Source: a virus. From it: a stretch of DNA of 38,588 nucleotides. The notes under the pieces are model-generated. The model had not been told where the DNA came from, ran no database searches, and saw only the letters and a program-made list of their open reading frames with translations. This document shows, piece after piece, positions 16,846-32,898 of this stretch. The stretch spans positions 1-38,588 of the IMG/VR virus record IMGVR_UViG_3300031269_000035; one strand, 5' to 3'. The position numbers and the translations under genes are program-made. The first letter of the stretch is position 1, and every line of letters starts with the position of its first letter.

Positions 16846-18627
16846 TTATCTCAGCTTCTCAAAACCACCTAACGGGTCAACCCGGTAGATGGTAGCTGCG
16901 TCACTAAACTCAAACCCGTCTGGGCTATCCAAAAGGATGCCATCCTGCGCTGCGGCCACCTGTGCATCTTGGTCGAAGCTGTACGGCGTTACCCTTGTGA
17001 TATAGAGAGGCCGGGCAATCAATATCTCCCAATCAGTTAGAAGCGTCAGCGACACGTTGCCCATATAGTAATAGTCGTCTCCAGTCTCGTCGTATGGTTC
17101 CTCGGACTCGCCGCCGAAGGATGCGTCCTCGATGATGATACCCTCTTCTGCCAGTCTCTCTCTACGCCACTGCCAGAGGTACATCACAATGAGGTCCGCC
17201 ATCTCGCTACGAGTCATCGAATCCCGTGCAATGATGTCAATGTCTAAGGAAACGTTGAACTTGCCTCCATAGGCATCTGCTACCTCCGAACGGGTACCCT
17301 CTACTACCACCGCCATAACGTCTTGGTCTTCCAGTTCCTTTCCGAAAGCGAGGACAGCGCCGGGGATGGCTTCATTGTTAGCGACCTCCCCTACTCCGAT
17401 AGGATAAGGTCCACGGGTAGCTACGGGATAACGGTAGTCTGCAAGAACTTGCGTGCCCGGAACAAATGTCCGAAGCCACGTTATCTCTCCAGTCTGCGGG
17501 TCAAAGGAGTAATCGCCTGCGTCGCCGGTCGATACGCCCAGAGAAGTAGTGGAAAAGCCAGTCAATATCTGGTTAGCAATTTCTGTGACCGCCTGATTGC
17601 CTTCTAAAAGAGCTATTTCCCGGTCTACCCCGTCCACCACAGCCTTAAAGGTTGCGCTAGAGGGGACAGTCGGCTCTACTATAAGGCCCGTCACGGACAC
17701 CGGCACAAAGCCTTCCGTAAAGCCTAGCAGTGGGTTGGCCGTCGAGGTTAGGTCAGCGTCAAAAGACAAAGAAACATCGGCATCTATCGACACAGCACCA
17801 CTGGACACACCTACCGAATAGGTCAGCCCATCCACTCCGGCAGCGATAATCGCGGCTTCAATTTCCAAAGCGATGTCGTCTGCCAGAATCCCTGTCCCTG
17901 CCGTGAAGGTCACGGACACTGCCGTGCCGTTAAGCTCAAAAGATAGAACATCATCTGTCCCGCTGGTCACCGTGAAGGGCTGAGTATTCGACCCTGTGAC
18001 GGTTACAGGTATCTGCCCCGTAGGAAGACCAAGTGCCACATGCGTACCAGAGCCGCCTAGTTCCAAAGACTCATCGGCTGTTAATGTGATAGCGGTCCCC
18101 GTGAATAAAGGCTGGTTGGGGTACTCGTAGAGCCTTACACTGTTTTCCAGCACCGGGGCGTGAGTCAGAATAGCATTCTGTTCGGTGCCCGTCTGGAATT
18201 GAATGATTGGCTCTTGCCGGATAGTGAGAAGGGGGTCAACATAGAACTGAAACTCATTCACCTCACCGGCTAGCTCCACCTCTTCTACTTGGACGTAATA
18301 GACGCCCGGCTCCGAGGGAAACACGTTACCGTTGGCCCGTATAGCAGTATCATCCTCCCGTACCCACTCAAGTGCTGTCCCCCGGTAGTCGTCTACCTTG
18401 GCTAGCATCAAATAGGAGTAAAGTGACCCGATATAGTTGTCGGAGGACAGAGACTGTGGGGAGGCCGAAGCACCTTGAATGACAATACCCTTCTGCGGCC
18501 TTTCGTCGAAGCTGTACTTCTCACGAATATGGTCAACCACATCCCTGTGCTGAGGATTGGCGTCGAAGCAGAATCGTAGAGTCTCCATGATCCGCTTCTT
18601 GACTGCTCTGGTTAGGTATTTGTACAT
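16846..18627 (-). CDS. Large beta-repeat virion protein, probably tail or tail-neck
   Basis: This is a 593-residue protein. A helical N-terminus (residues 1-40) is followed by a segment with SLYSYLMLAKVDDYRGTALEW, then beta-repeat modules at about 225-320 (VLSFELNGTAVSVTFTAG...DIALEIEAAI) that match the hook-like modules inside the sheath, then a third copy near 330-375 (FKAVVDGVDREIALLEGNQ). The C-terminal third has a helix MADLIVMYLWQWRRERLAEEG and an acidic/Tyr patch. Shared modules and position next to the sheath make a virion role likely. The exact function (tube-associated, baseplate or neck) cannot be told. It overlaps the upstream gene's end by 16 bases. Confidence 0.75.
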   Translation of the reverse strand: MYKYLTRAVKKRIMETLRFCFDANPQHRDVVDHIREKYSFDERPQKGIVIQGASASPQSLSSDNYIGSLYSYLMLAKVDDYRGTALEWVREDDTAIRANGNVFPSEPGVYYVQVEEVELAGEVNEFQFYVDPLLTIRQEPIIQFQTGTEQNAILTHAPVLENSVRLYEYPNQPLFTGTAITLTADESLELGGSGTHVALGLPTGQIPVTVTGSNTQPFTVTSGTDDVLSFELNGTAVSVTFTAGTGILADDIALEIEAAIIAAGVDGLTYSVGVSSGAVSIDADVSLSFDADLTSTANPLLGFTEGFVPVSVTGLIVEPTVPSSATFKAVVDGVDREIALLEGNQAVTEIANQILTGFSTTSLGVSTGDAGDYSFDPQTGEITWLRTFVPGTQVLADYRYPVATRGPYPIGVGEVANNEAIPGAVLAFGKELEDQDVMAVVVEGTRSEVADAYGGKFNVSLDIDIIARDSMTRSEMADLIVMYLWQWRRERLAEEGIIIEDASFGGESEEPYDETGDDYYYMGNVSLTLLTDWEILIARPLYITRVTPYSFDQDAQVAAAQDGILLDSPDGFEFSDAATIYRVDPLGGFEKLR

Positions 18628-19058
18628 ACATGATCATTCAAGGTGCGGCTGGATACCCGAATGTCGTAATGGCGGGCAATATCTTTGATTGCCCCACCAA
18701 TAAGGCGGTCTTCCATGCCTTGGACAAATTCGTCTGCGAGCTTTTCCATGTTTCGGAAATACGGCTCGAAGTCATCAATCAGGTCGCCGGGGCGGGAACG
18801 GCGGGTAACTTCCACCGGAATGTCCCACATGCGAGCCATGTACTCAAACTGGTCGCGTACCTTATTGTCCCCAGCATAGCCCATGACGTTGATCAGGGCT
18901 TCCTCTGGTCCGAGCATGTCCCGTACCTGCTCCCACTGGTCCCAATGCTTAAGACCAGCCGTGCGGGTCTGCATCTTCTCCAGTAAGGGGCGGATATGGG
19001 GGCGTAAGTCTTTGCGGACTGAGCCGAGCCGGATAAGTTCTTGTTTTAGATCAGACAT
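18612..19058 (-). CDS. Leader-tagged protein, 148 residues
   Basis: AAGG eight bases before the ATG supports the start. Residues 4-28 hold a divergent copy of the window's N-terminal leader: LIRLGSVRKDLRPHIRPLL. The rest is helical: a Trp-rich part (HWDQWEQVRDMLG), a hydrophobic MARMWDIPVEV segment, and GGAIKDIARHYDIRV. No family was recognised. It stands between the actin-family gene and the 593-residue virion protein. The shared leader with genes at 20391, 27971, 28382 and 28730 suggests a common destination, most simply the prohead; this is inference. Confidence 0.75.
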   Translation of the reverse strand: MSDLKQELIRLGSVRKDLRPHIRPLLEKMQTRTAGLKHWDQWEQVRDMLGPEEALINVMGYAGDNKVRDQFEYMARMWDIPVEVTRRSRPGDLIDDFEPYFRNMEKLADEFVQGMEDRLIGGAIKDIARHYDIRVSSRTLNDHVCTNT

Positions 19059-19073
19059 GATATGGGCCTTTTG

Positions 19074-20249
19074 TTAGATGTACTCTTGCATGGCCTGCAC
19101 TAAAAGGCCCTGAGCCACAGAGGTCATAGGGTCTTCGGCTTGCCGGATTTCACTAATTTCGATTGGGAAACGATTCCGCTGCTTCTCAAATACTTCCTTG
19201 AACAGATCGAGGAAGCCTCCTGCTAGGGAGGTACCCCCGCTGACGACAATGGGAATCGATTTCTGCAATTCCGTGTCATTCTGAGTCTCTTTGAACTTCT
19301 TGGAGATGTTGTCTAGTGCATACTTGATGAGGCTCTTGTAGTATACGACCAGTGCTTCCTCTTCCCGACTATTTGGCTGCGTCAGGTCTAGCCCTTTCTC
19401 TTTGATGGAGCAAAGGCGGCTGGCAGTTGAACCCACTGCATTCGCAGCGTTACGGTCAATCCAGTCACCGCCACGGGCAAGTGAGAACTCCATGATAGGC
19501 ATCGTCATGTACGAGAGGGCACAGTTGACCATGCCGCTACCGAATGAGATACCGATGCCGCTGAATTGATCTGCGGCACACTCTGAGTAAACAATAGCCA
19601 TCGCCTCATTACCTGAGATAGCGTCGTACCCAAGCTCTTCTAGAATCTTGGCGAAGACCGCCTCATGGTAGAGAACATCTTGGCCCGGCATATCGAGTGG
19701 GGCGGCTGGGATAGAGTAATAGCAGACTTCATTGTCTTCCTGAGGCTCACCCACCACATTCTCAATCAAGATAGAAAGCACCTCAAGGGCGTCAATCTCA
19801 GAAGCTGAGATAAGACCCTGTGACAAGGGGCGGCGCGCCTCTCGCTTGAAGAGGTTTGCAGTCTCAATAGCGGGGTCTCCCAGAATGAGGATTTTGTCCT
19901 CGTACTCGATGTAAGACACACCACTCATATTGAGCATCTTCTTTGCCTCTGCTTCTAAGTCGAGGAACGCATCACGGATGCGCTTCGTCTCTACGCTAGA
20001 ATCTACCTTCCGGGCAGCGACGATGTTCATCGTGCCGATGTCGAGGCCCACTCCTAATGCTGCTTTCTTGTCTTCACTCATTTTACTTCCCTCACTGTCA
20101 GAAGCCTCGGCTTCCAGTCCATACTCTTTGACTCGTTTTGCAATCGTTGAAGCAGAGCACCCGTAGGTCTCTGCAATCTCGTCATAGGTGGCCCCGGTCG
20201 AAAGAGCATCTGCCAGATCGCCGGGGTCTATGTCGATTCGTTTCGGCAA
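19074..20249 (-). CDS. Actin/Hsp70-fold ATPase with an N-terminal HTH
   Basis: The C-terminal 335 residues are an actin-superfamily ATPase: GLDIGTMNIVAA (phosphate 1, Asp70), GIGISFGSGMVNCALS (phosphate 2) and VVSGGTSLAGGF (adenosine site). It resembles ParM/MreB/Alp-type filament formers. Residues 1-56 add a resolvase-like helix-turn-helix (YDEIAETYGCSASTIAKRV). Two starts are possible: TTG at 20249 without a ribosome binding site, giving the HTH fusion, and ATG at 20081 after GAGGGAAGTAAA, giving the bare ATPase. A DNA-binding end plus a filament former recalls plasmid and jumbo-phage segregation or centring systems. The frame upstream of the TTG continues, across one TAA, into a 32-codon leader ORF (20253-20351). 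Both forms may be made. Confidence 0.85.
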   Translation of the reverse strand: MPKRIDIDPGDLADALSTGATYDEIAETYGCSASTIAKRVKEYGLEAEASDSEGSKMSEDKKAALGVGLDIGTMNIVAARKVDSSVETKRIRDAFLDLEAEAKKMLNMSGVSYIEYEDKILILGDPAIETANLFKREARRPLSQGLISASEIDALEVLSILIENVVGEPQEDNEVCYYSIPAAPLDMPGQDVLYHEAVFAKILEELGYDAISGNEAMAIVYSECAADQFSGIGISFGSGMVNCALSYMTMPIMEFSLARGGDWIDRNAANAVGSTASRLCSIKEKGLDLTQPNSREEEALVVYYKSLIKYALDNISKKFKETQNDTELQKSIPIVVSGGTSLAGGFLDLFKEVFEKQRNRFPIEISEIRQAEDPMTSVAQGLLVQAMQEYI

Positions 20250-20252
20250 GGC

Positions 20253-20351
20253 TTAATCCCACCCCATAAAAAGAGGGAGCAGATCAGCCCGAAGCTCGGG
20301 ATTTTCGTAGGCGAGTTTGATGAGGCTGGCTCTTAGTTTCCGGTCTGACAT
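20253..20351 (-). CDS. 32-residue leader mini-ORF in frame with the HTH-actin gene
   Basis: Too short for usual gene calling. It has AAGGA before the ATG and encodes MSDRKLRASLIKLAYENP and ELRADLLPLFMGWD, then TAA, GCC and the TTG start of the HTH-actin frame: same frame, one codon apart. The first 27 residues equal those of the protein at 20391-20843 and are encoded by an identical 59-bp stretch. Options: a duplicated remnant, a nonsense mutation that split a leader-HTH-actin protein, a TAA that is sometimes read through, or an upstream ORF coupling translation to the TTG. The sequence alone does not decide. Confidence 0.6.
   Translation of the reverse strand: MSDRKLRASLIKLAYENPELRADLLPLFMGWD
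20278..20336. repeat. 59-bp direct repeat, copy 1 (leader-coding)
   Basis: Identical over 59 bases to 20770-20828; mismatches begin at once on both sides. It codes for the leader core of the mini-ORF at 20253-20351. Identity at silent positions means recent duplication or gene conversion. Confidence 0.9.
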
Positions 20352-20390
20352 GATTTTTTCCTTAGGTCTTTAGACATTGATCGATCTTCC

Positions 20391-20843
20391 TTAGAAGCTG
20401 AGAGGGGTTTTAAGGCCGAGTTGATTAGCCGCTTTCGCGAGTTGGTTTCGGATGTCGTCGGGACGACGTGTGTGCCCCCCGACAACGTTCATAAGGCGAT
20501 GCAGGGCCTCTAGGGTTCCTCTATCAACACTGATACGCTCCCGAAGCTCATCGTAGACGTCCATAAGCAGTCGCCGGTTCCCTTCGTCCAGTTTGTAAGC
20601 CGCATCCATGACGTCGGCGCTAGGCATAACCATGTCCGCTAGGTCACTACCAGAGGATTTCTTGACCTTCTTTTTGCACTTGACGCAATAGGAGGTTTGC
20701 TCCAGTACCTTCGAGTCGCACTTCGGGCACTTGAAAGTGGAGTTGTCTCCGCCCTCTTTGATAAGGGGAAGCAGATCAGCCCGAAGCTCGGGATTTTCGT
20801 AGGCGAGTTTGATGAGGCTGGCTCTTAGCTTTCTGTCTGACAT
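20391..20843 (-). CDS. Leader-tagged zinc-ribbon protein
   Basis: This is a 150-residue protein. Residues 1-30 are the leader (MSDRKLRASLIKLAYENP then ELRADLLPLIKEG). A zinc ribbon follows at about 38-57: CPKC and CVKC, 14 residues apart. The rest is helical, with RRLLMDVYDELRERISVDRG and a basic GGHTRRPDDIRNQLAKAANQ end. No enzyme motif was seen. The modular build, a cleavable-looking tag plus a small zinc domain, fits a protein carried to the prohead, which is inference. Two GGTAATC elements lie 54 bases upstream at 20897-20923. Confidence 0.75.
   Translation of the reverse strand: MSDRKLRASLIKLAYENPELRADLLPLIKEGGDNSTFKCPKCDSKVLEQTSYCVKCKKKVKKSSGSDLADMVMPSADVMDAAYKLDEGNRRLLMDVYDELRERISVDRGTLEALHRLMNVVGGHTRRPDDIRNQLAKAANQLGLKTPLSF
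20770..20828. repeat. 59-bp direct repeat, copy 2 (leader-coding)
   Basis: Perfect match to 20278-20336, here inside the 5' end of the zinc-ribbon gene at 20391-20843. The copies are 492 bases apart. Confidence 0.9.
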
Positions 20844-20896
20844 TTTTTAAAACCATTTAGGTAAAAAGGGTTGTTGGTAACAATCACGCTCATCAC

Positions 20897-20923
20897 AAAA
20901 GGATTACCGAAAACGATTACCGA
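20897..20923 (-). promoter_or_regulatory. Two abutting GGTAATC elements
   Basis: On the minus strand TCGGTAATCGTTTT is followed directly by TCGGTAATCCTTTTGTGAT. The first copy overlaps the end of the nucleotidyltransferase gene and supplies its TAA stop. The next gene starts 54 bases on, at 20843. This is the strongest example of the element shared with 34520-34533 and 35644-35656. Confidence 0.5.
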
Positions 20924-22310
20924 CCGCGTCGGTGAGCTTGCGGGTGTTCTTCCGCAGTGCTGGATTATCTAGAAGAACGTCTCGGGCGGTGTCCATAAGG
21001 TCTGCAACCTGCCGACCTTTGAGGTCAAATTCTTTAATAAGCTGGGCGGTGTCCATGACCTTGCCCGGCTGTTTGAGCATATCCACGAACGCAGACGCAT
21101 CTCTCTCATCCATCTCCAGAGCTATCTGACGTAGGACCGCCATCTGAGCGTCGTCGAGGAAGTGTAAGCGGTTGTAGAGAGGAAGGCCCACATCCATCAT
21201 ATCAAACAGGAAGACGACCTTAGCATTGCCCCTAGCCCAATTTGCAAGCGTGGCCCGGAAAGCTTTGTCTTGTTCCAGAAGGTCCGAAATCTCGGCCAGA
21301 AGGCCAAGGTCACCTAGCACTTTGAGCACTTTCTTAGACTGGCTCATCTCCAAGATGTCATTAACCAAAATGTCAGCGATAGCGTTCTGAGGAGCTTTCT
21401 TGATTTTACGGGCGTTGCGGCGGATAGCCTGCGCCACTTCGGGATGAATCTTGAAGCCGTACTTGACCAAGAATTTCACAGCCCGAAGCATACGGGTAGG
21501 GTCGTCACTAAATGTCTTATCAGGGTTCGAGGGGCACTTCATAACACCCTCCTCTAAATCCCGGAGACCACAGCCAGTGAGGTCGATAATCTCAGCCTTA
21601 TCTGGCCCTTGTGCTAGTTCCGATAACTGCCAGAGTAGCGTATTAAAAGTAAACTCACGTCGACCTATGTCCTCTTCTATCGTGGACGGCTCAACCATGT
21701 GGGGTTTGTACCCCTTGCCGCCCTCTCCCCCATAAGACTCTTTGCGTGCGTTCGCTATCTCAATGACCTCCCCCTGCAATTCTTCCCCATCAACAACCCA
21801 CGACTCATTTACGGCTAAGATGGCCACCCCGTATTGGTTGGTCTTTAGAGAGGTTTTAGCAGGAATAGCCTGTTGAAGCTTCTTAGCAAACCAATCAGAA
21901 TCCTTACCTCTAAGGGCCACAGAATCAATGACAACATCGATGTCTTTGATAGGTCGGTCGATGACGAAGTTTCGGACTGCGCCGCCTACCACGTAGACGT
22001 GCTCCCCAACGCCGAGGCGTTTTGATTCTTTAGCTAGAAAGCGCATCAGCGCAATAGATTGGTCGTGTTTTGTCTCAGCACTCACGTGACGTGCCTCTCG
22101 GTAATGGAGTGCACCATCTTGGTACGACAGATACCCCATAGAAGCAAGGCTCTCTAGAACCTGACCCATAAGCTCGGGTTCCTCTTCCATTGCATCCACG
22201 AGGCTGTCGTAGTCTTGGAGTGCCGCTGATGCAACACGCTGACCCCACCTTCCTGTTCCCGCCAAGCGGATGAGGTGCTGATAAGCAACCTTTTGACTTA
22301 GATCAGTCAT
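20904..22310 (-). CDS. tRNA nucleotidyltransferase / poly(A) polymerase family protein
   Basis: This class II nucleotidyltransferase has about 468 residues. The active site is VYVVGGAVRNFVIDRPIKD then IDVVID: GG for nucleotide contact and DxD for metal. Further family features are REFTFNTLLWQLS, DDPTRMLRAVKFLVKYGF and a helical C-terminal half. Relatives add CCA to tRNA 3' ends or poly(A) tails. The phage form could repair tRNAs cut by host defences or tail phage RNA; the sequence does not choose. The second ATG (22310) is preferred to 22316 for spacing from GGGG. The first 20 residues (SQKVAYQHLIRLAG) resemble a degenerate copy of the leader seen in neighbouring genes. The N-terminal 100 residues before the catalytic domain are unknown. 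Confidence 0.85.
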   Translation of the reverse strand: MTDLSQKVAYQHLIRLAGTGRWGQRVASAALQDYDSLVDAMEEEPELMGQVLESLASMGYLSYQDGALHYREARHVSAETKHDQSIALMRFLAKESKRLGVGEHVYVVGGAVRNFVIDRPIKDIDVVIDSVALRGKDSDWFAKKLQQAIPAKTSLKTNQYGVAILAVNESWVVDGEELQGEVIEIANARKESYGGEGGKGYKPHMVEPSTIEEDIGRREFTFNTLLWQLSELAQGPDKAEIIDLTGCGLRDLEEGVMKCPSNPDKTFSDDPTRMLRAVKFLVKYGFKIHPEVAQAIRRNARKIKKAPQNAIADILVNDILEMSQSKKVLKVLGDLGLLAEISDLLEQDKAFRATLANWARGNAKVVFLFDMMDVGLPLYNRLHFLDDAQMAVLRQIALEMDERDASAFVDMLKQPGKVMDTAQLIKEFDLKGRQVADLMDTARDVLLDNPALRKNTRKLTDAVGNRFR

Positions 22311-23001
22311 CCTCATCCCCTTTTTTACGCAGGGCTGCTAGAGCGTTTGCGGCGTCGTCAAAGCTGGAGCCTTTACTTGATTCTGACGACACACCCACAC
22401 CCTTGCTGGTTTTCGCCCGCCCTGTCCTAATCTTTGACGGGATAAAGGCCGGAGCATCCCCATCAACTGCATCCGAAGATTTAGAAGGCGTAGTATGGGG
22501 ATTTTTTGGCGGAGGCGAGGCTGCTACATGCGCGGGCCGCTCCATGTATTCCGAAAACTGGTCCCCAAACTTCTCTTGCTGATTGATGAGTTGATTGATG
22601 GCACCCATCAGGTCGGAGTTCATCTTACGCAATTTCTCATTCTCTTCCAGAGACTTCTCTAACAGGGCTTCACTCTTGGCGAAGCTGCCTTCTCCCAGCC
22701 CCTCACCCTCTTCTGGGATGTCAGGCAGGTCATCGGTAAGAGGTGCTTTAGTCGTGTGCTTAGGCTTAGGCTGCACCCTCTTCACACGGCGCTTAGGGGG
22801 AGTCACAGGCGAGGCTTCCGTGCCTGTGATCACCTTGACCTTCTCCACTTGCTTTTGCTGGATAGCATGGTTCAAGTCACGGGACCACGCTGCCCGGCCA
22901 GCCTCTATGGTTATCGACTGTTGGTACGGTACCGTGATGCCTAAGTCTCGAATGGTATGACCCCCAATCACCTTACCCATAATGACGATGAACTTGTTCA
23001 T
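22303..23001 (-). CDS. Virion-module protein with coiled coil and disordered tail
   Basis: This is a 232-residue protein. A compact N-terminus (VIMGKVIGGHTIRDLGITVP, then a strand) resembles small phage structural proteins. A basic Pro/Lys/Arg linker (PPKRRVKRVQPKPK) and an acidic stretch follow, then a coiled coil at about 105-150 (EALLEKSLEENEKLRKMN), then a Ser/Pro-rich low-complexity end. GGGTGGTAA precedes the ATG, and the start overlaps the upstream stop. The exact role is unknown; a scaffold- or neck-associated protein is possible. Confidence 0.65.
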   Translation of the reverse strand: MNKFIVIMGKVIGGHTIRDLGITVPYQQSITIEAGRAAWSRDLNHAIQQKQVEKVKVITGTEASPVTPPKRRVKRVQPKPKHTTKAPLTDDLPDIPEEGEGLGEGSFAKSEALLEKSLEENEKLRKMNSDLMGAINQLINQQEKFGDQFSEYMERPAHVAASPPPKNPHTTPSKSSDAVDGDAPAFIPSKIRTGRAKTSKGVGVSSESSKGSSFDDAANALAALRKKGDEDD

Positions 23002-23507
23002 TTACCACCCATCAGTCGTTTCTTAACTTCGTCCTTTATCTGGCCCGAAATCTTTTCCTTGACCTTATCTCTGGCCTTTTCGATACCACGCTCTAAGAAA
23101 TGCTTGCCTTTGAAACCGGGGTGCTGCCACTTGCCTTCCTGCATAGACTTCGGCGTGGCGTTACGAAAGACTAGCTCGCCATTGTCCTTTACAATAGGGA
23201 TAGGACGGTTAGCCTTCGTCAAATGGGTCATCTGGTAAGCCTTAACGCCCGAGTTGAGGTACTTCGCTGCGGGGTGATCTGACTCAATAACGAGGGTGGA
23301 CTTACCTATAACCTTGAACGAAAAAGAGTTGAGCAGTTCTGTCGGCTGGCCCTTAAAAGACATACGCCGTATCTCTTTCTGGATCTCCATGATAGCTTCT
23401 CGGCCTACCTCTTCCAAGAGTTTCGTACGGTCATGCTGATCTTCTAGGGGGGTGTTCTTGGCTATAGGCTTACCGTAAACGCCCTTAAGTCTGAATTTAT
23501 TAGCCAT
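22998..23507 (-). CDS. HK97-gp10-like tail/neck completion protein
   Basis: This is a 169-residue protein with a perfect AGGAGG five bases before the ATG. The mid-part holds DHPAAKYLNSGVKAYQM and the C-terminal part HPGFKGKHFLERGIEKARDK, the typical HPG-x-x-G-x-x-F-L helix of the HK97 gp10/minor tail family. Such proteins sit at the head-tail junction or cap the tail tube during assembly. Neighbours are structural. Reasonably confident by motif and context. Confidence 0.7.
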   Translation of the reverse strand: MANKFRLKGVYGKPIAKNTPLEDQHDRTKLLEEVGREAIMEIQKEIRRMSFKGQPTELLNSFSFKVIGKSTLVIESDHPAAKYLNSGVKAYQMTHLTKANRPIPIVKDNGELVFRNATPKSMQEGKWQHPGFKGKHFLERGIEKARDKVKEKISGQIKDEVKKRLMGGK

Positions 23508-23697
23508 GCTTGCCTCCTATCTGCTTTGCAATCTCTTTCCGAAGTGCTGAGATATCTGCAACACTACCCACGACCACGGTGCCCTGCCTCTGGTCTTTGA
23601 TGAACATACGGTACAGAGGTACCGAATCACGTGACGCCCGTATGTTAAGACGGCTGGTAATTCTCTTTTCGGTACTTCGATTCAATGTCATATCCAT
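23500..23697 (-). CDS. Small protein, 65 residues
   Basis: ATG at 23697 has AGGA four bases upstream; GTG at 23700 and ATG at 23691 are also possible. The product has a basic first half (RSTEKRITSRLNIRASRD) and a hydrophobic VVVGSVADIS core, ending GGKHG. It overlaps the end of the upstream gene by about 50 bases and the next start by eight. No family was recognised. Confidence 0.55.
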   Translation of the reverse strand: MDMTLNRSTEKRITSRLNIRASRDSVPLYRMFIKDQRQGTVVVGSVADISALRKEIAKQIGGKHG

Positions 23698-24220
23698 CAC
23701 ATCCTAGTTGCGTGAGCACTGAAAGTGGCCCCCCGACTTCGACCAACACGGGGTCTTTCCAGTTGTGTGTCTCCAGACCGTCACTTACCGTCGTAATGAC
23801 CTTAACCCCGTAGTCCCTAAAGGGTGCTAGGGCGGTGGTGATAGCTGAAAGGTAATCCATAAAGGAGCGGTATCCTACATCCACAAAAATGACATCGGGA
23901 CTGCGACCTCTCAGAAAATCAAGCATCTTCAAAGACACAAAATTGCGCAGGTTCCTTGTGTGGAGAAAGTTGGCGCGGTCTGAAATCACGACACACTCGG
24001 TGTCCGGGTGCTGCTCAATGTACCGCTTGATAGCGGTAGAGTGCCCCGACCTCCTACCAAAAGATATATTCAAGAACCCGTGTGCGGAATGCAACACGTC
24101 GCGGGCGCTGTGGACAGGATAATCCCCCACATAAGCCTTAAAGCACGCAACCATCAAGTCCGTGGCATATGTGTTGGGGTGCCACAAAAACTTACCCACG
24201 AGTCCCTTCTGTATGATCAC
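23645..24220 (-). CDS. P-loop-like protein with His in place of the Walker A lysine
   Basis: This is a 191-residue protein. LNISFGRRSGHSTAIKRYI resembles Walker A (G-x-x-x-G-K-S/T) but has His where Lys belongs. CVVISDRANFLH and DVIFVDVGYRSFMDYLSAI follow as candidate beta-strand 2 and Walker B. The fold may be that of terminase- or helicase-type ATPases, cut to a minimal size; activity is doubtful without the lysine. The start is GTG coupled to the upstream stop (GTGAAGTGATC). Phage P-loop proteins with Gly-His at this place may be a distinct group; I could not check. Confidence 0.5.
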   Translation of the reverse strand: MIIQKGLVGKFLWHPNTYATDLMVACFKAYVGDYPVHSARDVLHSAHGFLNISFGRRSGHSTAIKRYIEQHPDTECVVISDRANFLHTRNLRNFVSLKMLDFLRGRSPDVIFVDVGYRSFMDYLSAITTALAPFRDYGVKVITTVSDGLETHNWKDPVLVEVGGPLSVLTQLGCDGYDIESKYRKENYQPS

Positions 24221-24498
24221 TTCACAAGACCCATCTCGTCGGCAGTCTCCATGACAGCACGATGGAGGTAAGGGTACACGTCGTCATCCTTGAGGTCCAT
24301 ATCCACACCCGCCTCTTCCAAAGCCTTGTCCAGCTTCTTCTTAGCCGTGTCAAAGAATTCTTTCTTGGCGTCTGAGACTCCGAGTTGCTGTGTGAGCATT
24401 TCGCCCATCATCTTCTCGACGTCGCCTTTAGCCTTGTACGAAAGCCTCTGCCCGAAAGCACGAAAGGCCACCATTTTTGCTACTCGCTTCTTGTTCAT
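24217..24498 (-). CDS. Small helical protein, 93 residues
   Basis: AGGAG at ideal spacing. It starts MNKKRVAKMVAFRAFGQRLS, like the nested protein at 935-1228 (MSKLRLAKMVARM), then is helical and acidic (DVEKMMGEMLTQQLG; KKKLDKALEEAGVDMDLK). The basic amphipathic first helix followed by unrelated sequence again looks like a tag. Function is unknown. Confidence 0.65.
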   Translation of the reverse strand: MNKKRVAKMVAFRAFGQRLSYKAKGDVEKMMGEMLTQQLGVSDAKKEFFDTAKKKLDKALEEAGVDMDLKDDDVYPYLHRAVMETADEMGLVK

Positions 24499-24522
24499 TG
24501 TATTCTCCTGTGGGGCGGGCGA

Positions 24523-25863
24523 TTACTGTCCGCCTCCGCTTATGTTCTCCCAAACGGGAGTACGTCCTTGCTCTTCAATGTCGTTCGACACTGCTGAGTC
24601 ATCTGTGATTTGAGGGTACCGAACTTCATCTTTCTCATCATCCCAATCAATAGTACGGGTCTCTGGGAAAGCCAGAGCATCCGTACCCGTCACAGGCACA
24701 TCGTAGCGAATGTCCCTCTTATCGAGGATGTCCACATTGAAGTGTTGCTGTAAGACATTTCCTCGGTTGGTCGGCATACGCACCGAACCAATCGAATAGC
24801 GGTCACCGTTCATTTTAACCATGAAGTCTCTCTGTGAGAGCAATGGCTGGGGTCCAGTCCAGACATCGTAGACCATCTCTTCTACCCTACCTCTTTCGGT
24901 CTGACGGATAATGCGCTCGGCGTCGGGCGGAGCCATTAGAATATTGTAAGGGCCTTCGTAGCCACCACGGATTCCAGTACCGAAACACGAACCACAATCA
25001 TTACGGGGGTGAGGGTCATCTGGACGCTTACACTTACATGTAACACCCCGGTACTTGTGAAGAAAAACCTTCACCCGCTCTCCACCTTGATCCAATATCC
25101 ACCTGTTACGGCGGATAGCCTCACGCCATATGTAGTCTAGGTTCTCCATCTGCTGGATATGGCGAGATTCTGTCCACTCCATTGGAGTCTCTTTGAGCAC
25201 ACCATCCCACTTATCGTAAGCCACGGTTGTGACCCGGTAAAATGTGCGCTTGTACAGGTCATTCTCGATGAGGTTGGCATTGTACCGGTAGGAGCACGTA
25301 ACCACTGAGTTTGGACCCGGCAATGCAGGGTCTATGCGCTCATTGGTTGCAGTATCATACTGGTAGGCCGTTTGAAGCTCTACCTCACCTGTCTCCCCAT
25401 AGACACGAGCGGGATTGATCTCCACTCCGTCTATGAAGACTTGTACGTCAGCCGAACTGTTTGCCACAACGTCAGGATTGTCTGGGGTCGTGATGGGGTA
25501 GTTCCGAACTCGGAAGATCCACCGGCCCTGTTCATCACCTTGTGCGACGAAGCGAGCACTAACGTCCTCTTGGACCACCGCTTCACTGGTCGTCTCGTCA
25601 CGGTAAAAGGTAGCACCTAATGGATTCGTATTGAGTCGGGTGAAAGGGCCAAACTCTGAGTCGAAAGAGCGGTAGACATTGACTCCGAGGATGTCGAAGC
25701 CAGTGTTGTTCGGCAACAAGGCCGGGTCTGTCCAGTGGATATCCACGCCCGTAAAGGTACTGGAAAAAGCCCATTGGACATTCGTGTTCAACGGCGGAAG
25801 GGGGTGCGTCGGGTTCTGACGCTCCTTTGTCGTTGTCTTTCTATCACGAGGTCCAGCAGCCAT
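24523..25863 (-). CDS. Virion structural protein with FN3-like and sheath-type modules
   Basis: This is a 446-residue protein. Residues 25-85 have an FN3-like run (VDIHWTDP...FDILGVNVYRS..GPFTRLN). At about 115-205 comes a module also seen twice in the sheath: FRVRNYPITTPDN, DVQVFIDGVEINPARVYG, ...VVTCSYRYN. Then comes a helix and a Cys-rich knuckle (CKCKRPDDPHPRNDCGSCFG, about 272-291) that may bind zinc. The C-terminal part is strand-rich. The build and neighbours indicate a virion protein near the tail or neck. GGTGAGGC stands before the ATG. Confidence 0.7.
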   Translation of the reverse strand: MAAGPRDRKTTTKERQNPTHPLPPLNTNVQWAFSSTFTGVDIHWTDPALLPNNTGFDILGVNVYRSFDSEFGPFTRLNTNPLGATFYRDETTSEAVVQEDVSARFVAQGDEQGRWIFRVRNYPITTPDNPDVVANSSADVQVFIDGVEINPARVYGETGEVELQTAYQYDTATNERIDPALPGPNSVVTCSYRYNANLIENDLYKRTFYRVTTVAYDKWDGVLKETPMEWTESRHIQQMENLDYIWREAIRRNRWILDQGGERVKVFLHKYRGVTCKCKRPDDPHPRNDCGSCFGTGIRGGYEGPYNILMAPPDAERIIRQTERGRVEEMVYDVWTGPQPLLSQRDFMVKMNGDRYSIGSVRMPTNRGNVLQQHFNVDILDKRDIRYDVPVTGTDALAFPETRTIDWDDEKDEVRYPQITDDSAVSNDIEEQGRTPVWENISGGGQ

Positions 25864-25892
25864 GCCTCACCGTCCTAGCAGAAGCCCCCTAC

Positions 25893-25933
25893 GAAAAATG
25901 CGGGGCACAAGGTATCTCTACCGTACCCCGCAT
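25893..25933 (-). terminator. Probable terminator with a two-part hairpin
   Basis: An 8-bp stem ATGCGGGG/CCCCGCAT (25898-25905 with 25926-25933) encloses a second small stem (GGTA/TACC). On the minus strand it is followed by TTTTTCG. It lies between the stop at 25962 and the start at 25863. Confidence 0.65.
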
Positions 25934-25935
25934 AT

Positions 25936-25948
25936 AAGCGGATAACCG
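25936..25948 (-). promoter_or_regulatory. GGTTATC-N3-TTATAT element
   Basis: The minus strand reads ACGGTTATCCGCTTATATGCG, partly running into the hairpin at 25893-25933. Because the terminator lies between it and the next gene, its role as a promoter is less clear than at other sites. Confidence 0.25.
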
Positions 25949-25961
25949 TTTCAGGTTAGGC

Positions 25962-26342
25962 TCAGGTCATTGCATTCTGCTTTAAGTGCTCTGCAATACG
26001 CATAAGGAATACCTCTGCCTCTTCATCTTCGGCGCGCATCCAACCGAGGATCACGGCCCCTAACTCGAATACTAGTTCTTTGGGGAGGCGCTTAATGAGG
26101 TGGTTCTGTATCTCGGGGTCAACGGGCCACTCGTAAGGGTAAACGTTCCCTTCAACCTCTTCCTCCATCAAGAGGATACGATCTCTTAGCAGGTCAGACA
26201 TGAATTGATACGGGTCTACGAACCGGTCGTAACTCTGGCGAAGCCTCTTCTGGTGGAACTTAGGGAGAGGCAAGTAGTAGAATTCAAACTCTGAATGTGA
26301 TGGGGAACAGTAACGGTAAAGGGAATTGGGCTGAGTCCACAT
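25962..26342 (-). CDS. Unknown 126-residue protein
   Basis: GAGGGGCCT precedes the ATG. The protein is aromatic-rich at the start (MWTQPNSLYRYCSPSHSEFE) and helical after, with ELVFELGAVILGWMRAEDEE. No family was recognised. It appears transcribed from an element 51 bases upstream (26393-26407) and ended by the hairpin at 25893-25933, so it may be a single-gene unit. Confidence 0.65.
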   Translation of the reverse strand: MWTQPNSLYRYCSPSHSEFEFYYLPLPKFHQKRLRQSYDRFVDPYQFMSDLLRDRILLMEEEVEGNVYPYEWPVDPEIQNHLIKRLPKELVFELGAVILGWMRAEDEEAEVFLMRIAEHLKQNAMT

Positions 26343-26392
26343 AGGCCCCTCGTTGGCTAAGTGTTGAACGAAATGCTACCTACAAGGGGGAT

Positions 26393-26407
26393 AAACAGAT
26401 TACCCGA
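26393..26407 (-). promoter_or_regulatory. GGTAATC-type element upstream of the 126-residue gene
   Basis: The minus strand reads TCGGGTAATCTGTTTATCC, 51 bases before the ATG at 26342. It shows the same GGTAATC-N3-TT core as the other structural-region elements. Confidence 0.35.
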
Positions 26408-26421
26408 ACGGCCTCGCTAGA

Positions 26422-26761
26422 TCACCGTAACAGGACCCGTCTTATAAGGGTTTGGGCGCGTTTACTTGGCTTGGATGTCAGGAATCCCGCACAACGACCA
26501 TGCTCGTAAGGAGGCTCAGTACCTTGGAACTCATACTGGTCGGAAGTCATATCCAAAATCTCACCATCCCGTACTAGCCACCAATGTACGACGCCCTTCT
26601 TGACAGGGCTTCCAACCAGACGACGTTCCGCCTAGTAAGTGCCACGCCGCTTCTGACGCCACATAACAATGGCCATAGAGGGGAATGTTTGAGCCTCGGA
26701 ATTTGGGCTTTAAGAGATCATCGGTCAAGGATGACCGAATGGCTAAACGCAATGCTATCAT
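26422..26761 (-). pseudogene. Frameshifted gene of a phage family with GHCYVASEA and HWWL motifs
   Basis: From ATG 26761 the frame gives LKPKFRGSNIPLYGHCYVA, then SEAAWHLLGG...GWKP, and then leaves the expected sequence and stops at 26561. In the frame one base on (dropping T 26605 in CCC-T-GTC), the text resumes VKKGVVHWWLVRDGEILD, MTSDQYEFQG, ...GRCAGFL, to a stop at 26422. Joined, they make a product of about 112 residues resembling a phage family with GHCYVASEA, HWFL and ILD.TA.Q motifs; a Cys-His-Asp set might be catalytic, which is inference. A true mutation, a +1 recoding site (CCC-U) and an assembly error are all open. No strong ribosome binding site precedes the ATG. Confidence 0.7.
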
Positions 26762-26800
26762 GAGGACACCGTAGCCTTTAAGAGGCCCGTAATCAAGTCC

Positions 26801-27691
26801 TCAGATTCCGATGAATTTTCGAGGGGTCAGGACGCCCTTACCGGTAACAGGACCAAACGCACTGCGCACGCCCAAGCCGTACCTGCTCTGTCGGAGACCT
26901 CTCATAATCTTCACGGTACGAGTCTTATTCTCCATGAACTTGTCGAAGCGGCCCTCTGCATTCTGCTTGATGGACTCGTACTTCGAGGACTTCTCAATGG
27001 ACAAAGACACACCCCCAATGGAGTAGTCAAACTCATCTGCTATCCAGTTCAAACTCAGCGCAATGCAAGCGTGAACCATAGCACCTGTCATGACCCACGG
27101 AATCCAGTCCCGCTTTGCTCTCACCAGATCATCAATAGATCGGAAATGAGTTTCAGGTGGGGAGGCGTTAATCGAGAAGACAGCCTGCTCCATATACTCA
27201 ATGAGTTCGATGTCCTCCCAGATGTACGCAAACACCCTGTTGAACTCGTTGATTGTCCCTGACGACGTTGGAGGCCGGAAATGGTAGTTTCGGTCGGGAT
27301 TGTTGTCTCTCAGGAGACGGCGAAGCCTCGCAATCATGTCCGCTTGTATGGTGGTGTACAACTGAGCTTGGAACTGTAAGGCATCCACAATCTCAAACTC
27401 CTCCATGACCGTTACTTGCGGTGACGAAGAAGTCTCTTGGATTGTCCACCGAATACGGTAGAGGCCGTAAGCGGCATTCTCTGGGACTTGGAAGTGTGCA
27501 TAGTACGAACCAAGTTCGATGCGCACAGGGTCACGCTGAGAAGGTCCGATAAGGACTTCCGTGCCTGTGGTCACATCGAAAAGGGCGTACTTGATGTAGA
27601 AGGGGTCAATCGGAGCATTGCCAGAATCTACCACTTCGATGGAGAGGTCATCGGGGCAGGTGATGTATCCTCTCTCGTACTGTTCTGGCAT
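26801..27691 (-). CDS. Virion structural protein of large myoviruses
   Basis: This is a 296-residue protein with GGAG five bases before the ATG. The N-terminal 105 residues form a beta domain (IELGSYYAHFQVPENAAYG; YRIRWTIQE). The central part carries ARLRRLLRDNNPDRNYHFRP, INEFNRVFAYIWEDIELIEY and WVMTGAMVHACIALSLNWIA, then FDYSIGGVSLSIEKSSKY. I recall similar strings in structural proteins of large myoviruses but cannot name the T4 equivalent. Position beside the gp10-like and FN3-like genes fits a neck or tail-completion protein. Confidence 0.7.
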   Translation of the reverse strand: MPEQYERGYITCPDDLSIEVVDSGNAPIDPFYIKYALFDVTTGTEVLIGPSQRDPVRIELGSYYAHFQVPENAAYGLYRIRWTIQETSSSPQVTVMEEFEIVDALQFQAQLYTTIQADMIARLRRLLRDNNPDRNYHFRPPTSSGTINEFNRVFAYIWEDIELIEYMEQAVFSINASPPETHFRSIDDLVRAKRDWIPWVMTGAMVHACIALSLNWIADEFDYSIGGVSLSIEKSSKYESIKQNAEGRFDKFMENKTRTVKIMRGLRQSRYGLGVRSAFGPVTGKGVLTPRKFIGI

Positions 27692-27709
27692 GACGGCTCC
27701 AGCTTGGGG

Positions 27710-27946
27710 TTACATGTGGCAGAGACGCTTTAGGTTGCGAATCTCATTGGCGTGGGACAGGGCCGAAACCTGAGCAGTACCTGCGAAGTAGCTATCTCGC
27801 ATCTCCCGCATGTTATCTATTTCGGCGAAAATGAAATAGGTCTTACGGCCTACTTTAGCCGAACCCTTAAACTCTACACCTGAGCTTTTGAGGTACGCAG
27901 CGAAATATAGGTCGCTGGTCCTAAAATCCTTCTCAACGCTTTCCAT
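27710..27946 (-). CDS. DUF5659-like small protein
   Basis: ATG at 27946 gives 78 residues; a TTG at 27964 would add six. The sequence DFRTSDLYFAAYLKSSG followed by a strand with GRKTYFIFAE matches the small DUF5659 family (phage and bacterial, unknown function). A helical Arg/Asn-rich end follows. It ends 19 bases before the next gene. Confidence 0.55.
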   Translation of the reverse strand: MESVEKDFRTSDLYFAAYLKSSGVEFKGSAKVGRKTYFIFAEIDNMREMRDSYFAGTAQVSALSHANEIRNLKRLCHM

Positions 27947-27970
27947 TCTACTCACTTGACTCAAGCAACA

Positions 27971-28366
27971 TTAACGCGGGAACATCTTAGCACTCTGCTC
28001 TGTTGCGTAATCGTCAGGCTCACCATGCTCACGAACCCACTTAGCTTCCTCATCGGTGAGCTTACCAAGTTGCTTCATGGAGATGTCCTCAAGTGACTTG
28101 ACAACATCTTCAATCATCTTGATCATTTTCTCGGCACCCTTCTTACCGGGGCCGTCAGAGTAAGAGGCGGCATGGTCATATTCCCGTGCCACATCCTTTA
28201 GCTCGCGCTCCATGTCATGTACTGTGTTCCAGTACTTATGCAGAACCCCCATAACAGGTCCCTGAGCACGAGCTTGCTTCATAGCAGCCAGTACAGGGCG
28301 GATATGCGGGCGAAGCTCCGGGTGTTCGGTACCGAGCTTGATAAGTTGCTGTGCTGTCTTGTTCAT
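27971..28366 (-). CDS. Leader-tagged helical protein, 131 residues
   Basis: AAGGAAAACCC precedes the ATG. Residues 1-30 (MNKTAQQLIKLGTEHP, ELRPHIRPVLAAMK) are identical to the start of the next upstream gene at 28382-28720 and lie in a 100-bp DNA repeat. The body is helical and charged (VHDMERELKDVAREYDHAAS; MIKMIEDVVKSLEDISMKQL). Same start plus different body looks like tag swapping. A scaffold or internal-head protein is possible; unproven. Confidence 0.75.
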   Translation of the reverse strand: MNKTAQQLIKLGTEHPELRPHIRPVLAAMKQARAQGPVMGVLHKYWNTVHDMERELKDVAREYDHAASYSDGPGKKGAEKMIKMIEDVVKSLEDISMKQLGKLTDEEAKWVREHGEPDDYATEQSAKMFPR

Positions 28367-28376
28367 GGGTTTTCCT
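28277..28376. repeat. 100-bp direct repeat, copy 1
   Basis: It matches 28631-28730 at 99 of 100 positions (the one difference is 28340/28694), covering the leader codons, the ATG and the ribosome binding site. The copies lie 354 bases apart, and the match stops sharply at the end of the leader. Confidence 0.95.
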
Positions 28377-28381
28377 TACGC

Positions 28382-28720
28382 TTAGAGTGACCGGCGAGCA
28401 GCGCCTTGAAGCTTAGAGATTTCCTTATCGGAATCCTTTACAAGCTTTCGGGCCTTTCGGAGGTTTTCTTCTGCCACCATTAGTGCATCGTACAAAGCTG
28501 TGGTGGCGCGCAAAGACCCTCTAGGAGCAATATCCATCCACCGTTCTCGGATACTAACAATCTCATCCACAGCTTCGACCACTTCATCGAGGGCTGTGTT
28601 GACGGGAATCTCCACCTCACGGCTAGAGGTCTTCATAGCAGCCAGTACAGGGCGGATATGCGGGCGAAGCTCCGGGTGTTCGGTACCGAGCTTAATAAGT
28701 TGCTGTGCTGTCTTGTTCAT
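28382..28720 (-). CDS. Leader-tagged helical protein, 112 residues
   Basis: GAGGAAAACCC precedes the ATG. The first 30 residues equal those of the protein at 27971-28366. The body has IPVNTALDEVVEAVDEIVSI and a long helix KARKLVKDSDKEISKLQGAA, suggesting a coiled coil. No family was recognised. It ends 15 bases before the next leader-tagged gene. Confidence 0.75.
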   Translation of the reverse strand: MNKTAQQLIKLGTEHPELRPHIRPVLAAMKTSSREVEIPVNTALDEVVEAVDEIVSIRERWMDIAPRGSLRATTALYDALMVAEENLRKARKLVKDSDKEISKLQGAARRSL

Positions 28721-28730
28721 GGGTTTTCCT
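28631..28730. repeat. 100-bp direct repeat, copy 2
   Basis: Partner of 28277-28376. Because the repeat includes the ribosome binding site, the duplication carries a complete translation start plus tag. Confidence 0.95.
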
Positions 28731-29329
28731 CACTTTTGGATGGGTACTAAAAGGGTCACGTTGTCTTGTACCTTAATATCAAAGTCTCTTCCAAGAGCCT
28801 TACCGAGGGAGCGCCAAAGATTATCCACGTTGTAATTAGGATGATCTCTAATGTAGACCTGCCATGCTTTGTTGCTACCGTGGTACATCATGCCCTTGTC
28901 AGCACGAACTCCCGCATAGCTGCTCCAATCATTACCGATGATAGCCTTGAGAGCCGATTCAATGTCTTTACCCACTTTCGGGTCAGGTGGCTCTAGGTTG
29001 TAAGGGTCGTTCTCATCTTGGTACATGTGCATCTCTACAATGTACTTGATGTCTTGCTTTCCAAACGACTCAATCACGTCACGGTAACGCTCTTGAGCGT
29101 AATCCTTGATGGCCTTCTTGACGAGGGCCTCGGCCTCAGCGGTACTCCTCCACGGGCCGTAGTTAGTGGTGGCAAGCATCGCAATCTCATCTTCGTACTG
29201 TTCTGCATGATTCGAAAGATTGAAGTGGGTCTTTTTTGCCGTCTTAAGCATAGGCAAGATGTCCTTACGAAGCTCAGGCTTGGCGTGAGCTAGACGGATA
29301 AGTGCATCTCTGAGTTTTTGATCAGACAT
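28730..29329 (-). CDS. Leader-tagged protein, 199 residues
   Basis: GGAGG four bases before the ATG. Leader at 1-30: MSDQKLRDALIRLAHAKP, ELRKDILPMLKTAKK, a diverged version. The body is mixed: a helical part (AEALVKKAIKDYAQERYRDV), an acidic loop (YQDENDPYNLEPPDPKVG), and a C-terminal WRSLGKALGRDFDIKVQ. No known motif. It is first of three consecutive leader-tagged genes. Confidence 0.75.
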   Translation of the reverse strand: MSDQKLRDALIRLAHAKPELRKDILPMLKTAKKTHFNLSNHAEQYEDEIAMLATTNYGPWRSTAEAEALVKKAIKDYAQERYRDVIESFGKQDIKYIVEMHMYQDENDPYNLEPPDPKVGKDIESALKAIIGNDWSSYAGVRADKGMMYHGSNKAWQVYIRDHPNYNVDNLWRSLGKALGRDFDIKVQDNVTLLVPIQK

Positions 29330-32385: not shown

Positions 32386-32898
32386 TTATCGAAACTTGGG
32401 CTTGTAGTCAAAGTAAATGCGCTTCGATTCCTGTAATGCTTTGTAAATGTGCTTGCACACGTAGTTGTTGTTATCAGGATCCCGTATAGACGGTACCGCC
32501 AACGTACCTCGGGGGTATTCCTCGGCATAGAGGTAATCCAAACGGTTCGCATGGTGCTCACAGCCGCCATACCGCCAGAAAGGACAAGAGCAGGACAGTA
32601 GCAAGTCAGCTTCCCAATAGTGGCGCTGGTTCTCCCCTTCCGCAGGTACGGCTTGTATTTTGACCGTATACGTCTTTGCCCCGCTCGTCGCATTATAGGT
32701 CAGGGTATTGAAGAGCTTATTGTGATCGCTCTGTGTGAGCCGAACCCCAGAAGCTCTCTCCACGATACCCTTATCTAGGTCTTGCAGAATGCCCTTGGCC
32801 TTTAACGCCTGCTTACTACGCCGTGCCCATACTTGGACCGGATGATAGCGAAGCATGTAAGAGGCGATAACCTCCTGTACGAGAGCGTCTTGAGTCAT
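32386..32898 (-). CDS. SWIM-zinc-finger-like protein
   Basis: This is a 170-residue protein with ATGA coupling to the preceding gene. The middle has LLLSCSCPFWRYGGCEHHAN and later YVCKHIYKALQES; CxC...CxH is the SWIM pattern, with a second Cys/His pair between. SWIM domains bind DNA or proteins in transposases, helicases and bacterial regulators. The N-terminus is helical and basic (VWARRSKQALKAKG). In this place an assembly-linked DNA-binding role is plausible. The call rests on the Cys/His spacing only. Confidence 0.6.
   Translation of the reverse strand: MTQDALVQEVIASYMLRYHPVQVWARRSKQALKAKGILQDLDKGIVERASGVRLTQSDHNKLFNTLTYNATSGAKTYTVKIQAVPAEGENQRHYWEADLLLSCSCPFWRYGGCEHHANRLDYLYAEEYPRGTLAVPSIRDPDNNNYVCKHIYKALQESKRIYFDYKPKFR

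What the first reader, a model, noticed from the sequence alone, without database searches (positions are those of the whole stretch)
18612..29329. A shared N-terminal leader starts at least five unrelated proteins
Genes ending at 19058, 20843, 28366, 28720 and 29329, plus the mini-ORF at 20351, begin with the same about 28-residue segment (LIKLAYENPELRADLLPL and variants LIKLGTEHPELRPHIRPVL, LIRLAHAKPELRKDILPML, LIRLGSVRKDLRPHIRPLL), followed by bodies that share nothing obvious. The nucleotidyltransferase has a faint copy. Known parallel: T4 internal proteins carry a cleaved capsid-targeting sequence. Inference: this is a modular tag delivering proteins into the prohead and perhaps removed by the prohead protease. 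If so, the tagged set is the cargo list of the capsid, including a nucleotidyltransferase and possibly an actin-like ATPase.
Basis: partly seen in the sequence, partly recalled or inferred. Interest (0 to 1): 0.8.

Follow-up and report, generated by a model that had tools for sequence, protein, structure and literature searches.

The report
Portable packaging tag of huge phages
Many unrelated proteins of a group of very large, uncultured bacterial viruses carry the same short tag, followed by what looks like a cutting site of the virus's own head-maturation protease, so the tag probably loads them into the virus head.

Summary
In detail: five genes and a mini-ORF share a ~28-residue leader with unrelated bodies. 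It is not peculiar to this window: the same tag occurs in 24 other records scanned (phage contigs up to 485 kb and one bacterial MAG), and 119 tagged proteins called in 17 records fall into 84 body groups. The tag is portable: mostly N-terminal, sometimes internal or C-terminal; one body family has it N-terminally in two phages, C-terminally in a third, and another tag type in a fourth. Right after the tag lies [KR]-x-A-[AGS] (44 of 79; background 3%; held-out 15 of 45). The same motif is 2.3-4-fold over-represented in the putative scaffold, the maturation protease and two other head-module proteins, sits near residue 25 of capsid protein and protease in 10 of 10 records, and is not enriched in terminase, portal or sheath. 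Best reading: a prohead-targeting propeptide removed by the maturation protease; it works like T4's capsid-targeting sequence but is not a member. The actin-like protein is not tagged (8 of 8 relatives; TAA stop here); the nucleotidyltransferase has a different N-terminal motif. Cleavage and virion location are inferred, not shown.

The parts
18612..19058 (-). tagged gene, 148 aa, unknown body
   Evidence: leader; no Pfam family and only a chance-level PHROG (E 0.18) on the body
18975..19058 (-). tag copy (LIRLGSVRKDLRPHIRPLL)
   Evidence: profile E 6e-17
18954..18965 (-). RTAG, candidate cleavage site after the tag
19074..20249 (-). actin-like protein (Pfam Volactin) with an N-terminal HTH-like stretch; NOT tagged
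   Evidence: PF25216 E 4.6e-80; homologs in 8 relatives lack the tag
20253..20351 (-). mini-ORF: tag copy without body, TAA stop, in frame with the actin gene
20391..20843 (-). tagged gene, 150 aa; Cys cluster at about residues 35-60 with weak zinc-ribbon matches (below Pfam cut-off); body residues 56-147 match the tagged G014_154947
20754..20843 (-). tag copy (LIKLAYENPELRADLLPL)
20904..22316 (-). tRNA nucleotidyltransferase-like; N-terminus carries a KVAYQHL motif (second tag type), not the leader
   Evidence: phrog_2244 E 6.9e-33; its N-terminal ~80 aa resemble a stand-alone gene in G020 (by eye)
27971..28366 (-). tagged gene, 131 aa, unknown body
28283..28366 (-). tag copy (LIKLGTEHPELRPHIRPVL), followed by KQA
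28382..28720 (-). tagged gene, 112 aa, unknown body
28637..28720 (-). tag copy, DNA nearly identical to the copy at 28366
28730..29329 (-). tagged gene, 199 aa, unknown body
29240..29329 (-). tag copy (LIRLAHAKPELRKDILPML), followed by KTA
24523..25863 (-). virion protein of the head-tail block (context)
   Evidence: phrog_1004 E 0.003; homologs in relatives, Tunturi_5 and phage G
22998..23507 (-). neck / tail completion protein (context)
   Evidence: phrog_5 E 3.4e-6
11719..16299 (-). tail sheath (context)
   Evidence: phrog_2839 E 4e-31

Best explanation
The leader is a portable, helix-kink-helix prohead-targeting propeptide of a group of huge tailed phages. Late in infection the tag docks diverse cargo proteins onto the growing prohead core. 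The phage's head maturation protease then cuts at [KR]-x-A (preferably before A, G or S), right after an N-terminal tag and often also before an internal or C-terminal one, the same kind of site it would use in the scaffold, in itself and in the major capsid protein. The freed cargo (for example an ADP-ribosyltransferase of the 'polyvalent' type and many unknown proteins) stays in the head and would be ejected with the DNA. Tags spread by duplication of a short ribosome-binding-site-plus-tag cassette onto new genes. Shown here: shared tag, portability, following motif, the same motif in head-module proteins, cassette duplication in the window. Inferred: that the motif is the cleavage site, that the tag targets the prohead, that cargo is ejected.
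For: Portability: 119 tagged proteins, 84 body groups. Position: after removal of duplicates 65 N-terminal, 12 internal, 2 C-terminal in the first set of 14 records. Same body with N-tag (G010, G021), C-tag (G014) or another tag type (G001), with K.A invariant at the start of the body. Motif after tag: [KR].A[AGS] 44 of 79 against 1113 of 36381 background 16-mers, 17 of the 44 at offsets of 1-5 residues; held-out records 15 of 45 non-C-terminal tags against 530 of 15526. Looser [KR].A within 10 residues: 63 of 76 and, held-out, 31 of 46 against 6402 of 84140. Same motif, observed/expected by shuffling: putative scaffold 51/13.2, h298704 51/12.6, h313122 22/6.2, protease 20/8.6, MCP 9/4.2; sheath 3/17.1, portal 1/4.1, terminase 6/7.7. 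None of 8 control motifs reaches the ratio of the target motif in scaffold, h298704 or h313122, though several are raised. Held-out scaffolds 13/3.1, 8/1.8, 7/1.3, 11/1.2. Motif at residues 24-27 of MCP and 23-28 of the protease in 10 of 10 records, two of them (G012, G013) nearly identical. Maturation protease, portal, TerL and MCP identified in G006; a tagged gene lies between the putative scaffold gene and the MCP gene. In the nearest relative, G020, 11 of 15 tagged proteins lie between TerL and sheath, expected 1.5. One tagged body is ART-PolyVal, E 4e-12; T4 Alt, an ART, is packaged and injected (passages of PMC5512222).
Against: No virion proteomics was found for any tagged phage. Clustering of tagged genes in the head-tail block is significant only in G020; in five other records it is not (P 0.098 to 0.9). 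The motif before internal/C-terminal tags is clear in the first set (9 of 14) but weak in the held-out set (4 of 18, P 0.013; two of the 18 are probably N-terminal tags with a misplaced start). Only 1 of 5 window tags has the strict motif and 3 of 5 the loose one; the window's own scaffold, protease and capsid genes are not in the record. A K at the end of the tag helix makes offset-0 hits partly part of the tag consensus. In the protease family the control motif [KR].A[KRDE] is raised as much as the target (23/8.8 against 20/8.1), and held-out proteases are mixed (9/1.6, 1/1.6, 6/1.8, 3/1.7). The neck protein, not a head-core protein, is also somewhat raised (5/2.3). Some homologs of tagged bodies show no recognised tag, for example G016_12169 (ART), G008_98588, G014_74258, G021_24801, G020_266596. 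Pfam prohead proteases S77, S78 and S78_2: none over cut-off in 13 records, one S77 match below it (E 0.006) in G007; the protease call rests on phrog_18299, E 2e-10.
Confidence: 0.7

Rival explanations
1. Targeting without removal: the tag is a docking helix that holds proteins to the prohead core or inner capsid surface, and the following [KR]-x-A is a helix end rather than a cut site.
For: The tag is predicted as two helices (mean pLDDT 85); most loose-motif hits are at offset 0, directly at the helix end (42 of 63 and 16 of 31).
Against: The motif also sits at variable offsets (17 of 79 strict), is enriched in scaffold and protease and sits near residue 25 of MCP and protease in 10 of 10 records.
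Confidence: 0.12
2. The tag targets another structure: tail or baseplate, a phage-made nucleus or replication compartment, or filaments of the actin-like protein encoded beside it.
For: Tagged genes are scattered over the genome in most records tested; the actin-like gene is present in 9 of 17 records searched for it and in a conserved gene block.
Against: The post-tag motif is enriched in head-module proteins and not in sheath, the putative tape measure or the actin itself. A nucleus-forming shell protein was not searched for.
Confidence: 0.1
3. Pro-domain: the tag keeps harmful effectors inactive inside the producing cell until it is cut off in the prohead.
For: Fits cleavage and an ADP-ribosyltransferase body.
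Against: One short helix pair on 84 body groups, at N-terminus, C-terminus or inside, is unlikely to inhibit them all.
Confidence: 0.04
4. Mere spread of a DNA cassette without function.
For: Recent cassette duplications in the window; in six of ten records identical tag residues share codons more often than codon usage predicts, most in the window (0.67 vs 0.32), G002 (0.54 vs 0.32), G006 and G012 (0.47 vs 0.30).
Against: In four of the ten records codon sharing is at or near expectation while the residues are kept (G001 0.40 vs 0.39, G003 0.50 vs 0.45, G005 0.44 vs 0.50, G008 0.34 vs 0.31), which points to selection on the amino acids.
Confidence: 0.02

Closest known systems
Capsid targeting sequence (CTS) of phage T4 internal proteins and Alt
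   Same: short segment on several proteins that steers them into the prohead and is cut off by the maturation protease; T4 Alt is an ART, as is one tagged body (passages of PMC5694885, and PMC5512222)
   Different: here about 28 residues instead of 10-20, also internal and C-terminal, apparently several tag types, predicted site [KR]-x-A, no S77 protease found
Propeptides of inner head / ejection proteins of SPN3US and phiKZ
   Same: huge phages with many inner head proteins, several with removed N-terminal propeptides thought to target the prohead (passages of PMC5694885)
   Different: those named in the passages are mostly over 100 residues and cut after motifs such as ALE or SQE; no shared portable tag is described in the passages seen
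Polyvalent proteins (Iyer et al. 2017)
   Same: ART-PolyVal domain; phage members predicted to be packaged and injected (passages of PMC5512222)
   Different: here each body has its own tag, with some tag-body-tag polyproteins; the other body families were not shown to belong to that set (DUF5710 is not named in that paper)
Encapsulation peptides of bacterial microcompartments (recalled, not tested)
   Same: short amphipathic helix at N-terminus, C-terminus or between domains that loads cargo into a shell
   Different: no shell proteins of that kind were looked for; here a tailed phage with predicted removal of the tag

Membership tests
T4-type capsid targeting sequence | on otherwise unrelated proteins | tested here: met
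   84 body groups among 119 tagged proteins
T4-type capsid targeting sequence | N-terminal, 10-20 residues | tested here: not met
   about 28 residues; 12 internal and 2 C-terminal of 79
T4-type capsid targeting sequence | removed by an S77 (gp21-type; assignment recalled) protease | tested here: not met
   PF03420: no match over cut-off in 13 records, one below it; another head maturation protease family is present
T4-type capsid targeting sequence | cleavage site just after the segment | tested here: inconclusive
   a motif is present and shared with head-module proteins; cutting itself not testable here
T4-type capsid targeting sequence | tagged proteins are in the virion | not testable with these tools
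   no proteomics of these uncultured phages at hand
SPN3US/phiKZ-type propeptide | cut after an acidic residue (x-x-E) | tested here: inconclusive
   a different motif, [KR]-x-A, stands out after the tags; x-x-E itself was not counted
SPN3US/phiKZ-type propeptide | S80-family prohead protease | not tested
   no S80 model was searched
Polyvalent proteins | several effector domains in one polypeptide | tested here: inconclusive
   one ART-PolyVal body; domain counts per tagged protein were not made

The most novel reading that the evidence does not exclude
Huge phages of this group use an interchangeable packaging code: at least three tag types (LRSKxIRLAHxNPxLRPHLLPLL; RVAxRxL; LIRxAASLPxGxPERRAIL), placed at either end or between bodies and bounded by one protease site, so that any gene becomes capsid cargo by acquiring a ~100-nt cassette, polyproteins are cut into separate cargo, and the injected arsenal can be read from the genome alone.
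Probability: 0.5. Interest if true: 0.9.

Novelty: new variant of a known kind. Interest (0 to 1): 0.77.

Why it matters
It would give a sequence rule that predicts which of the hundreds of unknown proteins of uncultured huge phages are carried in the head and injected at infection, a set that is otherwise found by proteomics of cultured phages. It also predicts the cleavage specificity of a maturation protease, and a short portable signal that could load foreign proteins into very large capsids.

Tried and rejected
Tag in named phages: by tblastn with two leader queries only LR745208.1 of 50,697 records; no match by profile in Tunturiibacter phage Tunturi_5, Bacillus phage G or LR756511.1, though the first two share the virion gene and the third the actin-like gene. 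Tag 3 in named phages: no match. A tag-2 N-terminus found only its own record.

Pfam prohead proteases: none over cut-off. Family scans: in the per-protein tables (and the first member in 41, 42) only chance-level matches touch the tag (for example phrog_23192, E 0.16); the tallies give no positions. PDB by sequence: best E 0.15.

Idea that the tag's 'IRLA' helix copies an element of scaffold and protease: 13 of 29 hits of the pattern in untagged proteins lie in 25 head-module proteins of the first set, but these are few families; in held-out records it is in 1 of 4 proteases and 3 of 4 scaffolds, and the tag profile does not rank them. Left as a suggestion.

Tags 1 and 3 as homologs: profile comparison probability 22.5%, E 9e-4, over 14 columns: not shown. 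The KVAxRxL motif is only modestly N-terminal: 22 of 2379 proteins in residues 1-40, against 9 of 1930, 5 of 1476 and 2 of 1158 further in.

Papers: PMC5512222, PMC7824862 and PMC5694885 were seen as passages only; no other paper was opened. Searches bearing on the tag or on capsid targeting listed no title or abstract describing this tag; some searches were on Tunturi phages, polyvalent proteins and volactin. This covers the open-licence library only.
Full report
OBSERVATION. The window is a 38,588-base virus record. Six places on its minus strand start with the leader: genes 18612-19058, 20391-20843, 27971-28366, 28382-28720, 28730-29329 and a mini-ORF 20253-20351. With the leader masked the bodies do not match each other. 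The mini-ORF ends in TAA one codon before the TTG start of the actin-like gene, so it is a bodiless copy. Copies 28720/28366 share about 100 nt from the ribosome-binding site to the tag's end with one mismatch; 20843/20351 share about 80 nt. So the unit that moves is 'ribosome-binding site plus tag'.

SPREAD. By tblastn one named phage record carries the leader, LR745208.1, a 485-kb uncultured phage, with 11 copies by profile on different ORFs. Two degenerate patterns over IMG/VR brought further contigs. A profile then matched in 14 of 14 records of the first set including the window, and in 11 of 14 of the second set, where the three without a match had been picked for another tag type. One of the matching records is a MAG labelled Actinomycetota, probably with a phage contig in it (inference).

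MODULE. I read 13 records plus the window and later four held-out records. In the first set 81 tags lie in 75 called genes. After adding window gene 18612-19058, removing three exact duplicates and correcting one start: 65 N-terminal, 12 internal, 2 C-terminal. Over both sets 119 tagged proteins, from 17 of the 18 records, fall into 84 body groups; 70 are singletons and the largest has 15 members. Single proteins can hold up to three tags (G010_10685, G016_28271). Bodies swap tags: the ART body of G009 (tag 1) has in G006 a KVAFRHL start (tag 2); a repeat protein of G003 and G011 (tag 1) has in G007 a LIRKAASLPVGHPERRAIL start (tag 3). One family carries tag 1 at the N-terminus in G010 and G021, at the C-terminus in G014, and tag 3 in G001, and in all four the body begins after an invariant K.A. 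The body of tagged G003_134523 follows a Dps-like domain (by eye) and RIASRTAA in G001. Other body homologs show no recognised tag, for example the ART homolog G016_12169. AlphaFold gives the tag as helices 3-16 and 18-29, mean pLDDT 85.

THE SITE. Reading on from the tag, [KR].A[AGS] occurs within 16 residues in 44 of 79 cases, against 19 of 627 body 16-mers and 1113 of 36381 16-mers of untagged proteins. Seventeen of the 44 are displaced by 1-5 residues, which speaks for an element of its own. Held-out records: 15 of 45 non-C-terminal tags against 530 of 15526; with the looser [KR].A within ten residues 63 of 76 and 31 of 46 against 6402 of 84140. Before internal or C-terminal tags it is present in 9 of 14 (background 1140 of 23887), but only in 4 of 18 of the held-out set.

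THE LINK TO THE HEAD. In G006 the head genes were identified: terminase (phrog_2), portal (phrog_16240), head maturation protease (phrog_18299, E 2e-10), major head protein (phrog_2522). The Lys/Glu-rich protein between protease and capsid genes is called scaffold here by position and composition. A tagged gene lies between it and the MCP gene. The motif found behind the tags is over-represented in the scaffold (51 seen, 13.2 expected by shuffling, five records), in h298704 (51/12.6), h313122 (22/6.2), the protease (20/8.6) and MCP (9/4.2); it is 1/4.1 in portal, 6/7.7 in terminase, 3/17.1 in sheath, 22/28.3 in the putative tape measure, and somewhat raised in the neck protein, 5/2.3. Eight control motifs do not reach these ratios in scaffold, h298704 and h313122, although several are raised, and in the protease [KR].A[KRDE] is raised equally. 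Ranked over the called proteins of at least 60 aa with two or more hits, 11 of the top 15 are scaffold or h298704 orthologs (first set). The four held-out scaffolds give 13/3.1, 8/1.8, 7/1.3 and 11/1.2, held-out h298704 10/3.0, 7/2.9, 12/2.3 and 10/3.9; held-out proteases are mixed, 9/1.6, 1/1.6, 6/1.8, 3/1.7. In 10 of 10 records the motif stands at residue 24-27 of the MCP and 23-28 of the protease. Chance figures treat sites as independent; orthologs are not, so the evidence is weaker than the P-values look.

READING. A tag that can sit at either end or inside, on dozens of unrelated bodies, bounded by a motif that also marks scaffold, protease and capsid protein, is best explained as a prohead-targeting propeptide. 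The ART-PolyVal body fits an injected effector; T4 Alt is the known case (PMC5512222, passages). Other named bodies (DUF5710, a RelA_SpoT match just under its cut-off, DUF2958, pentapeptide repeats) say little about function, and many bodies match no family.

WHAT DOES NOT FIT. Clustering with head-tail genes is strong only in G020 (11 of 15 tagged proteins, expected 1.5), the window's nearest relative by two virion proteins (67 and 69% identity); in five other records it is not significant. In the window the tagged genes are interleaved with virion genes, but its own capsid, scaffold and protease genes are not in the record. Only one of five window tags has the strict motif and three of five the loose one.

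The actin-like protein (Pfam Volactin, E 4.6e-80) is a conserved neighbour of neck, tail-terminator-like and sheath genes and is untagged in 8 of 8 relatives. The nucleotidyltransferase carries the second motif type; of its homologs the one in G008 has it too. The tail-terminator name rests on gene order in Tunturi_5.

MEMBERSHIP AND NOVELTY. It works like T4's CTS but fails two of its defining features (N-terminal 10-20 residues; S77 protease). I therefore rate it a new variant of a known kind. The paper searches on the tag and on capsid targeting listed nothing that describes such a tag.

Noticed in passing
19074-20249 and relatives G001, G003, G006, G008, G012, G014, G020, G021: A volactin-type actin (family named after a Haloferax protein, recalled) is a conserved gene of the neck-tail block in these huge phages, near the sheath gene in the nine records that have it; a distant one is in the 595-kb phage LR756511.1.
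   Followed up: partly
G003:C1:130480-132690: The volactin gene of G003 has an in-frame stretch of about 390 codons between its two profile halves, possibly an intein.
   Followed up: no
G007_5488, G007_56864, G001_106959, L170, L173, L174: Third tag type, LIRxAASLPxGxPERRAIL, at the N-terminus or inside proteins of further large phages.
   Followed up: partly
G009_5975, G009_6800, G010_10685, G016_28271, G021_55732, L162, L176: A second short module, EFxTxxAxxKYLxxHPxADxxxH, often follows the tag and recurs in unrelated proteins.
   Followed up: no
G006_281935, G003_20015, G021_89487: After the tag a short motif GD[VL]IPF[PA]G recurs (a similar GPW motif in G010).
   Followed up: no
35151-35597; G001_22233, G003_21146, G021_55732: Dps-like gene (by eye); in relatives it is fused, via [KR]xA[AGS] sites or tags, to other bodies, so it may itself be head cargo.
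   Followed up: partly
8893-10590: Phage-encoded GroEL (phrog_5725, E 6e-149), only 26-31% identical to those of five related records.
   Followed up: no
24217-24498 and 32895-33443: Further window proteins starting with RVA/KVA motifs (MNKKRVAKMVAFRAF, MHRKVAKKYL), possible second tag type; similar starts in G020.
   Followed up: partly
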